Positions 1,586 through 64,000 of a stretch of DNA of 64,000 nt are shown here, piece by piece; positions within the stretch are counted from its first letter, which is position 1, and the number at the start of each line of letters is the position of its first letter. A program made the position numbers and the translations under genes. Origin of the DNA: Flavobacteriales bacterium (GTDB lineage: Bacteria; Bacteroidota; Bacteroidia; NS11-12g; UBA955); NCBI GenBank assembly GCA_002737705.1, contig NSIM01000004.1, forward strand, positions 62,001 through 126,000, written 5' to 3'. The notes beneath the pieces are model-generated. The model saw only the letters and a list, made by a program, of their open reading frames with translations, searched no databases and was not told the DNA's origin.

Positions 1586-2302
1586 ATGACACATTTAACA
1601 ACCTTACTACCAATCGCCTCTGACAATTACGTAGCATTTACGTTTTTTACCGGAACAATGGCCATGATGGCCGCATCCTTATTCTTCTTTTTTGAACTGA
1701 GTAACACAAAGCCAGAATGGAGGACTTCCATTCTTGTTTCTGGCTTAATTACTTTCATTGCAGCAGTGCATTACTACTACATGAGAGATTACAACTTAGG
1801 TACTGGTCAGTCACCTATCTTCTTCCGATATGTGGATTGGATTCTTACTGTTCCATTAATGTGTGTTGAGTTTTATTTAATTACCAAAAAAGCAGGTGCA
1901 AAAATTAACTTGTTATGGAAATTGATTTTTGCTTCTCTAATTATGTTGATTACTGGTTATTTTGGAGAAGCAGTTTACAAAGGTTCAGCCGCAATATGGG
2001 GTTTATTTTCAGGTTTAGCTTACTTTTATATTGTGTATGAAGTATGGATGGGTGACGTTGCTAAACTTTCCAAAGGAAGTACGCCTGCAGTTCAAAAAGC
2101 TGTTGGCTCACTATTGAAGTTTGTTGTTATTGGTTGGGCTATTTATCCTATAGGTTATCTGGTAGGAACTGGTGACGGACAGTGGTATTCTTTCATGGCT
2201 GATTTGGGTTGGAATATGGACATCATTTACAATATTGGTGATGCTGTAAATAAAATTGGTTTTGGTTTGGTTATCTATTCTTTAAGCAGAAGCGAAGACT
2301 AA
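1586..2302 (+). CDS. Proton-pumping rhodopsin (proteorhodopsin/xanthorhodopsin type)
   Basis: A seven-helix retinal protein of 238 residues, expected to pump protons outward across the inner membrane in the light. Helix C reads RYVDWILTVPLM and gives the counter-ion Asp84, Thr88 and the proton donor Glu95: the DTE triad of outward proton pumps. The Schiff-base lysine is Lys223 (GDAVNK) with Asp219 one turn before it, and His62 matches the proteorhodopsin histidine that pairs with the counter-ion. The colour-tuning position (105 in the marine reference protein) is Met92, a residue typical of green-absorbing pumps in Bacteroidota. Position 139, in helix E, is Gly where the reference proteorhodopsin has Phe; a small residue here opens the side window used by carotenoid antennae in xanthorhodopsin. 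No retinal-synthesis gene (blh or crt) lies in the window, so the chromophore genes must be elsewhere. The gene stands alone and is followed by strong hairpins. Confidence 0.97.
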   Translation: MTHLTTLLPIASDNYVAFTFFTGTMAMMAASLFFFFELSNTKPEWRTSILVSGLITFIAAVHYYYMRDYNLGTGQSPIFFRYVDWILTVPLMCVEFYLITKKAGAKINLLWKLIFASLIMLITGYFGEAVYKGSAAIWGLFSGLAYFYIVYEVWMGDVAKLSKGSTPAVQKAVGSLLKFVVIGWAIYPIGYLVGTGDGQWYSFMADLGWNMDIIYNIGDAVNKIGFGLVIYSLSRSED

Positions 2303-61349: not shown

Positions 61350-62396
61350 TTACAAAATGATGGGAAACATCAAGTATTCAAGAAAAAATAAACACCAATA
61401 AAACATATAAAACCGGTGAATGCTTTTGGGATTGTTGAGATCGCATCGCCTTGATTGCCAAAGAAAAAGTAACAATGCCAATAAATGGGCAATTCCTGCA
61501 ACCCTGTTTTGTTGAATTATCGGCTGTGCTTCGCCAATTGCAATAAAAAATCTTGACCCCATATTGGGCATCAAATAATGCCAAGCAATTAAAACATAAG
61601 CCAACGAAACTACTGTAACCCCTGCTCGAAATGCCTGGGTTTTATTCCATATAACCGCTACTGTGCGTATGCCAAATTCTGCATCTCCTTCGGTATCTGG
61701 AATGTCTTTAAACCATGCAATGCCTAAACTAAACGCACTTACAAACAGGGTTAAAGGAAACAACCAATCTGGAGAAATAAACGAACAGTTGTAAACCAAC
61801 GTATAAAAATGTACTGTTAACCCAATATTAACCATTGGACCGCGAACCAATGCAATGGCCGATGCCGCCCAAACATGGTAACGCTTGAAACGGATGGGTG
61901 GCATAGAATAAAGGGTTCCAATGAGTGCTATTGTGGCAATTAAATAACCAAAAAAAGGCTGGATACTCCAAGATATTGCCAATGCCAAACACAAAGCAAC
62001 CAAGCAAATTGTCCACGCTTGCTTCAGCGAAAGTTCAGAAGATGCCAAGGGCAAATTGGGTTTGTTTATTTTGTCTAATTCTATGTCGCTAATTTGATTC
62101 AGGCCGGTAATAAATAGATTACAAGACAAGCAAGCAATTAAACTCGGAAAAAACAAAGTGAAAAAAACAGATAATTTTTCTACCACTAAGGGGATAAATC
62201 CCACCACCATAGGCATATTGGCGTCGGATTTAGGTATGCTGGAATCTGACAATAAATACAAGTAATCATTATGGATTAAACAATCTGTATTGGGCAGTGG
62301 CGTATAAAACACAACCAAAACCAACAAGGTAAAAACGCTCACTGAAGAACCGATGATTGTGTGTGGCCTGGCAAAACGCCAAATTTTGTGTATCAT
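61350..62396 (-). CDS. Homogentisate phytyltransferase-like UbiA prenyltransferase
   Basis: A 348-residue integral membrane prenyltransferase. It opens with WRFARPHTIIGSS. The first Asp-rich motif is NQISDIELDKINKP (100-113), ASSELS lies at 118-123, and the second Asp-rich motif is WFKDIPDTEGD (228-238); these bind the Mg-diphosphate of the prenyl donor. The ending LFFLEYLMFP also matches my recollection of cyanobacterial homogentisate phytyltransferase (Slr1736/VTE2), to which this protein looks closer than to UbiA, MenA or chlorophyll synthase. A hydrophilic insert of about 40 residues lies between helices 1 and 2 (33-75). It should join phytyl- or other prenyl-diphosphate to homogentisate. 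It is divergent from the phytol-kinase/DUF92 fusion gene, 82 bases away, and lies 169 bases upstream of carB on the same strand. Confidence 0.88.
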   Translation of the reverse strand: MIHKIWRFARPHTIIGSSVSVFTLLVLVVFYTPLPNTDCLIHNDYLYLLSDSSIPKSDANMPMVVGFIPLVVEKLSVFFTLFFPSLIACLSCNLFITGLNQISDIELDKINKPNLPLASSELSLKQAWTICLVALCLALAISWSIQPFFGYLIATIALIGTLYSMPPIRFKRYHVWAASAIALVRGPMVNIGLTVHFYTLVYNCSFISPDWLFPLTLFVSAFSLGIAWFKDIPDTEGDAEFGIRTVAVIWNKTQAFRAGVTVVSLAYVLIAWHYLMPNMGSRFFIAIGEAQPIIQQNRVAGIAHLLALLLFLWQSRRCDLNNPKSIHRFYMFYWCLFFLEYLMFPIIL

Positions 62397-62400
62397 ATCT

Positions 62401-62408
62401 CAAAGTAA
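62401..62408 (-). promoter_or_regulatory. -7-like element of the prenyltransferase gene
   Basis: On the minus strand TTACTTTG, one mismatch from TAnnTTTG, ends four bases before the ATG at 62396. The distance is the same as in several better matches in this window. The 82-base region 62397-62478 must also hold the promoter of the divergent gene, for which I see only a weak TTCCTTTG at 62431. Confidence 0.42.
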
Positions 62409-62478
62409 CAACCAAGCGTTCCATTTTGTGTTCCTTTGTTAAACCATTCTTTGTTCAAGCTTTTTGTATCCCACTCAA

Positions 62479-64000
62479 ATGCCAGCATTTTTCATTATCG
62501 TCATTCTAATTGCAATGGGTATTACATTGTTCACCCTACTGGAAAAACGTTTTCCTAAATCGATATTTTTGTGGCGAAAACTTCTACATATTTTAGTGAT
62601 ATTACTGTGTAGTATAGGAATTTTAAAAATACCATTTGTTCCCATTTTTTGCATTTCGATTTTTGCCACCTTGGGTTTACACTATGCCATATCGAAAGGT
62701 TTTTTTGAGTCCTCAGAACATTCTGGATCTCAGAGAAAACCTTGGGGCATGGTTTATTTTGCCGCAACTTTTACCGGAATGACAATCTTAAAAACGATAG
62801 ATAGTGGTGGTGCCCTGTCTTTTATTTGCTTCATTGCATTAAGTGTTTTGGCTTTGTCTGATGGTTTTGCAGGAATTATTGGTGCGTGGGCTTCCCGAAG
62901 AGAGGGAATACATAAAAAGATGAAAAAATGGGGTTTGCCCTTTTATTTAACATGGGGAAACAATACCAAAACCTTGGCCGGTTTTATGGTATTTATTTTG
63001 TTGACGTGGTTAATTTTATTTTTTGCCCCAAGTATCGCGCATCAATTTTTTCCAGAAATTGGTATTCACAATATTCCCATTGGATTCGATTGGATAATAC
63101 TTACATGTATAATGGCATTTGCAATTGCACTGGTTGAGATGGTTTCGTCGGGTGGGAGTGACAACCTATTTATTCTGTTGTCTTCCATTGTTATTTGTTC
63201 CATTCTCTTTGTTCCCCATCCTGCGAATCAACTGCATTCGACGGGCTTGCGATTGTTACAACTTTCGAGCAATACACTGTTATTGTATTTATTGGGATCG
63301 GTGATTCTTGCAATGGGTTTTGTTCGCTGGCGATTGCTTAGTGCATCAGGAGCTGTAATGGCTTGGCTATTGGCATATACGGTAATGATATTGGCGGGTT
63401 GGAGCATCGTATTTCTCTTTGCGTTTTTTTTACTCGCAACCCTAAGCACTAAAATTGGAAATGGGTTTGGTATTGTTAATACCGATTCCAAATCGGGTAG
63501 GCCGAGAGACCACTGGCAGGTATTGGCCAACGGTGGGATTGTAATGGGACTCGCCCTTTTGTCATCACTTTTTGGCATTGACCCAGCTATGTTTGGGCGC
63601 TGGAAAGACCCTAGTGGAAGCCAAGATATTTTCTATTTGTTGTCGTTGGTCTCTGTTGCTGTTGCTTGCTCCGACACCTTGAGCAGCGAATTGGGAATGC
63701 GTTTTGGGAAGAAAACACACAACATTATATTTCTTCGGCCGATTCCTAAGGGCGTCTCTGGAGGTGTTTCAATCAATGGGCTTTGGGCTGCAGTAATGGG
63801 TGCCTCGATTATTGCCCTATTTTCCTTCACTGTCAATTGTAAAATAATAGGCTATTGGGGTTTCGTTTCCCATGGCAGACTATTTTTTTTTATTGCCAGT
63901 TTGGGTTTTTTGGGGTCGATTTTAGACAGCATTTTAGGTGCCTTATTTCAAGTCAAATACCAAAAAGATAACGGACAACTTTCAGATACTAAAGAAAACA
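62479..64000 (+). CDS. Fused phytol-kinase-like / DUF92 (phytyl-phosphate kinase, VTE6-like) protein, partial
   Basis: The frame from ATG 62479 stays open to the window end, giving at least 507 residues; the C-terminus is cut off. The first half (about 1-225) has 6-7 membrane helices and the marks of the phytol/dolichol kinase family: a RKLLHI segment (19-24 after the first helix), LSDGFAGIIG (about 132-141) and GNNTKTLAGF, the counterpart of the K-[ST]-x-x-G nucleotide-binding motif. The second half (from about 280) is DUF92/COG1836: SASGAVMAW, FLLATLSTKIG, WQVLANGG, the signature CSDTLSSELG, PIPKGVSGGVSINGL and DSILGALFQ. In plants and cyanobacteria VTE5 makes phytyl-phosphate and VTE6 (DUF92) makes phytyl-diphosphate, so the fusion would carry out both. 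The frame is confirmed by continuous hydrophobic coding over 1.5 kb. Confidence 0.87.
   Translation, partial: MPAFFIIVILIAMGITLFTLLEKRFPKSIFLWRKLLHILVILLCSIGILKIPFVPIFCISIFATLGLHYAISKGFFESSEHSGSQRKPWGMVYFAATFTGMTILKTIDSGGALSFICFIALSVLALSDGFAGIIGAWASRREGIHKKMKKWGLPFYLTWGNNTKTLAGFMVFILLTWLILFFAPSIAHQFFPEIGIHNIPIGFDWIILTCIMAFAIALVEMVSSGGSDNLFILLSSIVICSILFVPHPANQLHSTGLRLLQLSSNTLLLYLLGSVILAMGFVRWRLLSASGAVMAWLLAYTVMILAGWSIVFLFAFFLLATLSTKIGNGFGIVNTDSKSGRPRDHWQVLANGGIVMGLALLSSLFGIDPAMFGRWKDPSGSQDIFYLLSLVSVAVACSDTLSSELGMRFGKKTHNIIFLRPIPKGVSGGVSINGLWAAVMGASIIALFSFTVNCKIIGYWGFVSHGRLFFFIASLGFLGSILDSILGALFQVKYQKDNGQLSDTKEN

What the first reader, a model, noticed from the sequence alone, without database searches (positions are those of the whole stretch)
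61350..64000. Divergent gene pair predicted to turn phytol into a tocopherol-type prenylquinol in a Bacteroidota
A homogentisate phytyltransferase-like enzyme (minus strand) faces, across 82 bases, a protein combining phytol-kinase-like and DUF92 (phytyl-phosphate kinase) domains. Together they give phytol -> phytyl-P -> phytyl-PP -> transfer to homogentisate, the VTE5-VTE6-VTE2 route known from plants and cyanobacteria. A heterotroph without chlorophyll could use this to salvage phytol released from phytoplankton, making a tocopherol-like antioxidant or another prenylated quinol. The same window carries a light-driven rhodopsin, which fits a sunlit, phototoxic habitat. Seen: motifs and gene order. 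Known: the three families. Inferred: substrate and product.
Basis: partly seen in the sequence, partly recalled or inferred. Interest (0 to 1): 0.82.

Follow-up and report, generated by a model that had tools for sequence, protein, structure and literature searches.

The report
Phytol-salvage prenylquinol genes in Bacteroidota
A non-photosynthetic freshwater-type bacterium, and dozens of its relatives, carry a conserved gene cassette related to the plant and cyanobacterial vitamin E pathway; it probably turns scavenged phytol (the tail of chlorophyll) into a membrane antioxidant-like quinol, but without the last step that would make vitamin E itself.

Summary
Window 61350-62396(-) is a homogentisate phytyltransferase (HPT; NF009525, 268 bits, cut-off 226). 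The facing gene (545 aa, ending 101 bases past the window) joins a phytol/dolichol-kinase-like half to a DUF92 (VTE6-family) half. In a tree the protein falls with cyanobacterial HPTs (100/99), apart from MenA, heme-O synthase and chlorophyll synthase. The genome encodes 4-hydroxyphenylpyruvate dioxygenase (451 bits), which supplies homogentisate. Tocopherol cyclase is absent here and from all 108 genomes searched in the order, and no geranylgeranyl reductase or chlorophyll synthase was found. So the likely product is an open-ring phytyl- (or geranylgeranyl-) benzoquinol, not tocopherol, made from an imported prenyl alcohol. Beyond the finding: the pair is a conserved cassette across Bacteroidota (kinase beside HPT in 30 of 35 loci with enough flank). 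Many copies include a third gene, an unnamed SAM-methyltransferase family that overlaps or precedes HPT. It co-occurs with HPT (23 of 23 genomes) and exists elsewhere in this genome. Substrates and product are inferred; no activity is shown. Verdict: a real, conserved, undescribed variant of the VTE5-VTE6-VTE2 pathway in heterotrophs.

The parts
61350..62396 (-). Homogentisate phytyltransferase-like UbiA prenyltransferase (HPT/VTE2 type), 348 aa
   Evidence: NF009525 268 bits over cut-off 226; groups with cyanobacterial HPT at 100/99
62073..62099 (-). First Asp-rich motif NQISDIELD (residues 100-108), UbiA NxxxDxxxD
   Evidence: N100, Q101, D104, D108 invariant in 18 HPTs
61683..61709 (-). Second Asp-rich motif KDIPDTEGD (residues 230-238)
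   Evidence: K230, D231, P233, D234, G237, D238 invariant in 18 HPTs
62397..62463 (.). Divergent intergenic region (67 bases to the TTG start, 82 to the ATG start at 62479); presumably holds both promoters
   Evidence: promoters not tested
62464..64000 (+). Fused kinase protein, 545 aa, cut by the window end (true stop 101 bases further, C34:126101)
62464..63228 (+). N-terminal phytol/dolichol-kinase-like (VTE5, CTP-transferase superfamily) domain, residues ~1-255
   Evidence: fusion profile matches separate cyanobacterial proteins L180-L182 at 82-92 bits over this half; shared motifs RKxxH, SDG/GDG, KS/TxxG, E..S..GxDN; best structural match CDP-DAG synthase, Z 8.4
63301..64000 (+). C-terminal DUF92 (COG1836, VTE6-type phytyl-phosphate kinase family) domain, residues 280-536 of the full protein
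   Evidence: PF01940 181 bits; cyanobacterial DUF92 proteins L178/L179 match this half at 102-117 bits

Best explanation
The pair is the core of a prenyl-alcohol salvage and quinol-making pathway. The fused protein phosphorylates a C20 prenyl alcohol twice: the N-terminal half makes phytyl-P, probably CTP-dependent, and the DUF92 half makes phytyl-PP. HPT then joins phytyl-PP to homogentisate, supplied from tyrosine by the genome's 4-hydroxyphenylpyruvate dioxygenase, giving 2-methyl-6-phytyl-1,4-benzoquinol. A methyltransferase encoded elsewhere in this genome, and beside HPT in many relatives, probably methylates the ring to a dimethyl-phytyl-benzoquinol. With no cyclase the product stays an open-ring prenylquinol, presumably a lipid-soluble antioxidant or redox carrier. 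The phytol would come from chlorophyll of phytoplankton or detritus. Shown: gene identities, phylogeny, conserved linkage, presence or absence of the other pathway genes. Inferred: substrates, order of reactions, product, role.
For: HPT over the curated cut-off and inside the cyanobacterial HPT clade, 100/99. Both halves of the fusion match separate cyanobacterial proteins with catalytic-type residues conserved. HPPD 451 bits in the same genome. Among the five UbiA proteins found none looks like a chlorophyll synthase (labels by eye), and no geranylgeranyl reductase passes its cut-off, so de novo phytyl-PP by known enzymes looks impossible. Kinase divergent from HPT in 30 of 35 Bacteroidota loci. 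The methyltransferase gene overlaps HPT by 4 bases in several relatives, co-occurs with HPT in 23 of 23 genomes (Fisher p 2e-11, not phylogeny-corrected) and is gained or lost together with it inside two genera; a copy lies at C24 of this genome. A homogentisate-dioxygenase-like gene sits two genes from HPT in one genus, pointing to homogentisate as acceptor.
Against: No biochemical evidence. HPPD is near-universal in the order (105 of 108), so it is permissive rather than specific, and a homogentisate-dioxygenase-like gene (L006, weak TIGR01015 match) offers a catabolic fate for homogentisate. Some close relatives keep only the DUF92 half next to HPT (L073, L075, L076, L079), and Lewinella showed only a stand-alone DUF92 and no N-half match, so the first kinase step is not always accounted for. 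DUF92 fused to a dolichol-kinase-like domain also occurs in archaea with uppS context (PMC5898192), so the fold does not fix the alcohol.
Confidence: 0.62

Rival explanations
1. Same enzymes, other tail: the salvaged alcohol is geranylgeraniol or farnesol (or HPT uses GGPP made by the cell), giving a tocotrienol-type or shorter-chain open quinol; phytol is not involved.
For: The VTE5 family includes farnesol kinases (PMC9782597), and plant HPT can take GGDP when homogentisate is plentiful (PMC10925712 abstract). A rhodopsin bacterium is expected to make GGPP for retinal (own knowledge; not checked here).
Against: A kinase pair tied to HPT across Bacteroidota would be superfluous if GGPP were drawn directly from biosynthesis; HPT groups with cyanobacterial HPTs, which prefer phytyl-PP (own knowledge).
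Confidence: 0.25
2. The fused kinase serves general polyprenol phosphate metabolism (undecaprenol or dolichol-like, cell envelope) and HPT is a neighbour with an unrelated role.
For: Archaeal DUF92 and DUF92-dolichol-kinase fusions are proposed to act in polyprenol metabolism, with uppS context (PMC5898192).
Against: Adjacency to HPT in 30 of 35 loci across several Bacteroidota families, with various outer neighbours, and exactly the two families that feed HPT in plants.
Confidence: 0.08
3. The organism makes genuine tocopherol with an unrecognised cyclase.
For: Weak tocopherol-cyclase-like proteins (52-76 bits over a 26.6 cut-off, YxEKDWG-type motif) exist in a few HPT genomes (Saprospiraceae, Lewinella, a Calditrichaeota).
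Against: None in this genome or 108 genomes of the order, while true cyanobacterial cyclases score far higher (up to 551 bits). Similar cyclase-like proteins occur in heterotrophs of unknown function (PMC4963081) and are not near HPT.
Confidence: 0.05

Closest known systems
Cyanobacterial/plant phytol salvage to tocopherol (VTE5, VTE6, VTE2, then VTE3/VTE1/VTE4)
   Same: Same three enzyme families for phytol to phytyl-PP to phytylated homogentisate; HPPD source of homogentisate; HPT phylogenetically cyanobacterial-type
   Different: Non-photosynthetic Bacteroidota; the two kinases fused; genes clustered and divergent; no cyclase; no geranylgeranyl reductase; unnamed methyltransferase family beside HPT in many relatives
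Archaeal COG0170-COG1836 fusion proteins (e.g. Mbar_A3310; PMC5898192)
   Same: Same domain order: dolichol-kinase-like N-terminal, DUF92 C-terminal
   Different: Archaeal context reported is uppS, not HPT; no homogentisate prenyltransferase partner described there
Tocopherol-cyclase-like proteins of heterotrophic bacteria (PMC4963081)
   Same: A tocopherol-pathway relative in non-phototrophs
   Different: Not found in this genome or order; not clustered with HPT where they occur

Membership tests
Homogentisate phytyltransferase (HPT/VTE2, NF009525) | Score above the curated equivalog cut-off | tested here: met
   268.3 bits vs 226
Homogentisate phytyltransferase (HPT/VTE2, NF009525) | Groups with cyanobacterial HPT, not ChlG, MenA, heme-O or other UbiA | tested here: met
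   HPT clade 100/99 holding 15 cyanobacterial and 32 Bacteroidota proteins; 17 other UbiA outside (outgroup labels assigned by eye)
Homogentisate phytyltransferase (HPT/VTE2, NF009525) | Both Asp-rich UbiA motifs | tested here: met
   Invariant in 18 sequences
Homogentisate phytyltransferase (HPT/VTE2, NF009525) | Transfers phytyl from phytyl-PP to homogentisate | not testable with these tools
   Needs enzyme assay
Phytol kinase (VTE5, COG0170-like) | Homology to cyanobacterial phytol-kinase-like proteins with conserved motifs | tested here: met
   82-92 bits to L180-L182, motifs aligned. That these are orthologues of Synechocystis VTE5 was not checked; NCBIfam gives them no useful name
Phytol kinase (VTE5, COG0170-like) | CTP-transferase-type membrane fold | tested here: inconclusive
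   CDP-DAG synthase 4q2g top by VIA-align, Z 8.4, 175 residues, rmsd 5.2; next rows about 6; Foldseek alone not significant
Phytyl-phosphate kinase (VTE6, DUF92) | PF01940 gathering score | tested here: met
   181 bits vs 27.5
Phytyl-phosphate kinase (VTE6, DUF92) | TIGR00297 equivalog cut-off, which a cyanobacterial DUF92 protein passes | tested here: not met
   78.6 bits vs 205.85 on the window's 512 aa; cyanobacterial L178 scores 250.6. It is a divergent DUF92 member, so not filed as a VTE6 orthologue
Complete tocopherol pathway | HPPD (homogentisate source) | tested here: met
   451 bits vs 277
Complete tocopherol pathway | Tocopherol cyclase VTE1 (PF14249) | tested here: not met
   Absent in own genome and 108 of the order; four cyanobacterial positive controls detected
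Complete tocopherol pathway | Ring methyltransferase (VTE3/VTE4) | tested here: inconclusive
   An unnamed class I SAM-methyltransferase-like family is linked to HPT in relatives and present at C24 here; its relation to VTE3/VTE4 not tested

The most novel reading that the evidence does not exclude
Heterotrophic Bacteroidota of lakes and other habitats recycle chlorophyll's phytol into a previously unrecorded open-ring, ring-methylated phytyl-benzoquinol, using a fused double kinase, HPT and an undescribed methyltransferase family: a truncated vitamin E pathway that ends before cyclisation and works without photosynthesis.
Probability: 0.45. Interest if true: 0.85.

Novelty: new variant of a known kind. 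Interest (0 to 1): 0.72.

Why it matters
[quoted passage not shown] A conserved HPT plus kinase cassette in many non-phototrophic Bacteroidota would extend that chemistry, give genetic-context support for the DUF92 = prenyl-phosphate kinase assignment outside plants, name a new candidate quinol methyltransferase family, and suggest a biosynthetic rather than catabolic fate for phytol in lakes.

Tried and rejected
Contamination by cyanobacterial DNA: rejected; the cassette recurs in dozens of Bacteroidota genomes, often next to carB, and its G+C is close to the window's. MenA, heme-O, ChlG or archaeal lipid synthase identity: rejected by tree and cut-offs. Homogentisate supply on the same contig: none seen near the end of the contig; HPPD is on another contig. 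Foldseek of the fused kinase against PDB gave nothing at E<=0.001; only the VIA second look pointed to CdsA. TIGR02032 hits in this genome are short N-terminal stretches far below cut-off, read as ordinary FAD folds. Tocopherol-cyclase-like proteins of Lewinella, a Saprospiraceae and a Calditrichaeota were examined and are not near HPT. The Plant Cell paper on VTE6 is not in the held library. No paper found describing HPT in Bacteroidota.

Full report
1. Observation. The minus-strand ORF 61350-62396 (348 aa) is a UbiA prenyltransferase (PF01040, 117 bits) that passes the curated homogentisate phytyltransferase model (268.3 bits, cut-off 226; next best families 70 bits). The facing ORF starts at 62464 (TTG) or 62479 (ATG); the gap is 67 or 82 bases. 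It is cut by the window end; in the genome (G000, 1.92 Mb, 45 contigs, 100% complete, 3.3% contamination) it continues 101 bases and encodes 545 aa. Residues 280-536 are DUF92 (181 bits). The first half has no Pfam match, but a profile of 21 Bacteroidota fusions finds, in two cyanobacterial genomes, one set of proteins matching the second half only (102-117 bits) and another matching the first half only (82-92 bits). Alignment shows the same residues: RKxxH, S/GDG, K(S/T)xxG, E..S..GxDN for the first half; D(T/S)xxSE, G(L/V/T)xG(G/A), DS/ES, ND/NE for the second. AlphaFold2 gave mean pLDDT 81.8. The best structural match to the first half is the CDP-DAG synthase (Z 8.4, above unrelated rows near 6), which is the superfamily expected for CTP-dependent prenol kinases; this is modest evidence because Foldseek alone was not significant.

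2. (a) Phylogeny: in a 65-protein tree the window protein falls with 31 other Bacteroidota HPTs (82/93) and with 15 cyanobacterial and one Calditrichaeota HPT in a clade at 100/99, apart from proteins I labelled by eye as CyoE, ChlG, MenA, EboC and 4-hydroxybenzoate prenyltransferases. Relationships inside the HPT clade are poorly resolved, so direction and number of transfers are open. (b) Homogentisate source: HPPD is present (451 bits, cut-off 277; C43). It is near-universal in the order (105 of 108), so it permits the pathway but does not single it out. A homogentisate-dioxygenase-like cupin is also present (L006; weak TIGR01015 match, 54 bits against a cut-off of 511), so homogentisate may also be degraded. 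(c) Tocopherol cyclase: absent here and from all 108 genomes of the order. The search works: four cyanobacterial controls were found, three at about 550 bits and one split in two pieces. (d) Geranylgeranyl reductase: only short stretches far below the cut-off. (e) Five UbiA proteins in the genome, none of which I read as a chlorophyll synthase. So, by known enzymes, phytyl-PP could come only from salvaged phytol.

3. A cassette, not just a pair. Among 55 Bacteroidota HPT loci from the genome collection, 35 have at least 2.6 kb upstream; 30 of these have the kinase there, on the opposite strand. In many relatives another gene sits between: a 235-260 aa protein on HPT's strand, overlapping HPT by 4 bases in several genomes. 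It has no NCBIfam name and only sub-threshold methyltransferase hits in Pfam. Its AlphaFold model (pLDDT 95.4) matches class I SAM-dependent methyltransferases (E 2e-7). A fold does not prove activity. It occurs in 23 of 108 genomes of the order at 100 bits or more with a counterpart HPT over its cut-off in all 23 (Fisher p 2e-11, not corrected for relatedness; three further genomes, G059, G064 and G065, hold more distant relatives of 132-146 bits without an HPT over cut-off and were not counted as members). Within genus g4 the split is 11 with both, 6 with neither; within g16, 3 with both, 4 with neither. The window's genome has it on another contig, C24:17304-18011 (E 1.8e-101), beside meta-cleavage-type aromatic degradation genes (my reading of the sequences); its sister genome G084 shows the same arrangement. 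In genus g4 a homogentisate-dioxygenase-like gene lies two genes from HPT, hinting at homogentisate as acceptor. HPT and kinase are under purifying selection relative to the nearest relative (dN/dS 0.16 and 0.33).

4. Mechanism proposed. Phytol (released from chlorophyll) -> phytyl-P (N-terminal half) -> phytyl-PP (DUF92 half) -> 2-methyl-6-phytylbenzoquinol (HPT with homogentisate from HPPD) -> possibly ring-methylated (methyltransferase). With no cyclase the product stays an open-ring quinol, likely a membrane antioxidant or redox carrier. Shown: gene identities, homology, linkage, presence and absence. Inferred: every substrate and product. Complications: some near relatives retain only DUF92 beside HPT; three HPT loci with room have neither neighbour; Lewinella sp. 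IMCC34191 showed only a stand-alone DUF92; genera with HPT but without the linked methyltransferase must use another methyltransferase or none.

5. Known context. Reviews hold that tocochromanols are made only by phototrophs (PMC9515888; [quoted passage not shown] The fused dolichol-kinase/DUF92 architecture is already known in archaea, where DUF92 was placed in the cytidylyltransferase superfamily (PMC5898192). COG1836 was earlier proposed for phytol-phosphate metabolism from plant-prokaryote comparison (PMC3223725). Tocopherol-cyclase-like proteins in heterotrophs are known, function unknown (PMC4963081). I found no paper on HPT in Bacteroidota in the held library, which does not exclude one elsewhere; NCBI's model already names such proteins homogentisate phytyltransferase.

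6. Verdict. It is a new variant of a known pathway: heterotrophic, cyclase-free, with fused kinases and an unnamed candidate methyltransferase. The rhodopsin is real but unlinked. Confidence in the enzyme logic is about 0.62; in phytol specifically somewhat less.

Noticed in passing
window 1586-2302 (+): Microbial rhodopsin, PF01036 134.6 bits, with an RYVDWxLTVPxxxxEF segment typical of proton-pumping proteorhodopsins (reading by eye); about 60 kb from the HPT pair.
   Followed up: partly
window 61350-62396 (-), residues ~45-88: HPTs of the window's genus carry an extra segment of up to about 40 residues after the first hydrophobic stretch, shorter or absent in other Bacteroidota HPTs.
   Followed up: no
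L066 1492-2208 (-) (genome C24:17304-18011); L201 6002-6736 (+): In this genome and its sister the HPT-linked methyltransferase lies among genes resembling oxalocrotonate decarboxylase, oxopentenoate hydratase and acetaldehyde dehydrogenase (aromatic meta-cleavage), not beside HPT.
   Followed up: partly
L073 4650-5483, L075 2306-3256, L076 7041-7955, L079 7098-7955 (all -): Close relatives keep only the DUF92 half next to HPT; no room remains for the N-terminal kinase half in L073.
   Followed up: partly
L195 6037-7005 (-), L197 6078-7061 (+), L196 3019-4017 (-): Short tocopherol-cyclase-like proteins, with a YxEKDWG-type motif seen in two of the three, in HPT-bearing Saprospiraceae, Lewinella and Calditrichaeota genomes; not linked to HPT.
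   Followed up: partly
L116 5167-6036 (+) and 6077-6859 (-): A Calditrichaeota contig carries HPT and a divergent member of the same methyltransferase family, convergent, so the association reaches outside Bacteroidota.
   Followed up: no
L056 6044-7773 (+), L046, L040, L045: In one genus a homogentisate-dioxygenase-like gene and a peroxiredoxin sit directly downstream of HPT, facing it.
   Followed up: partly
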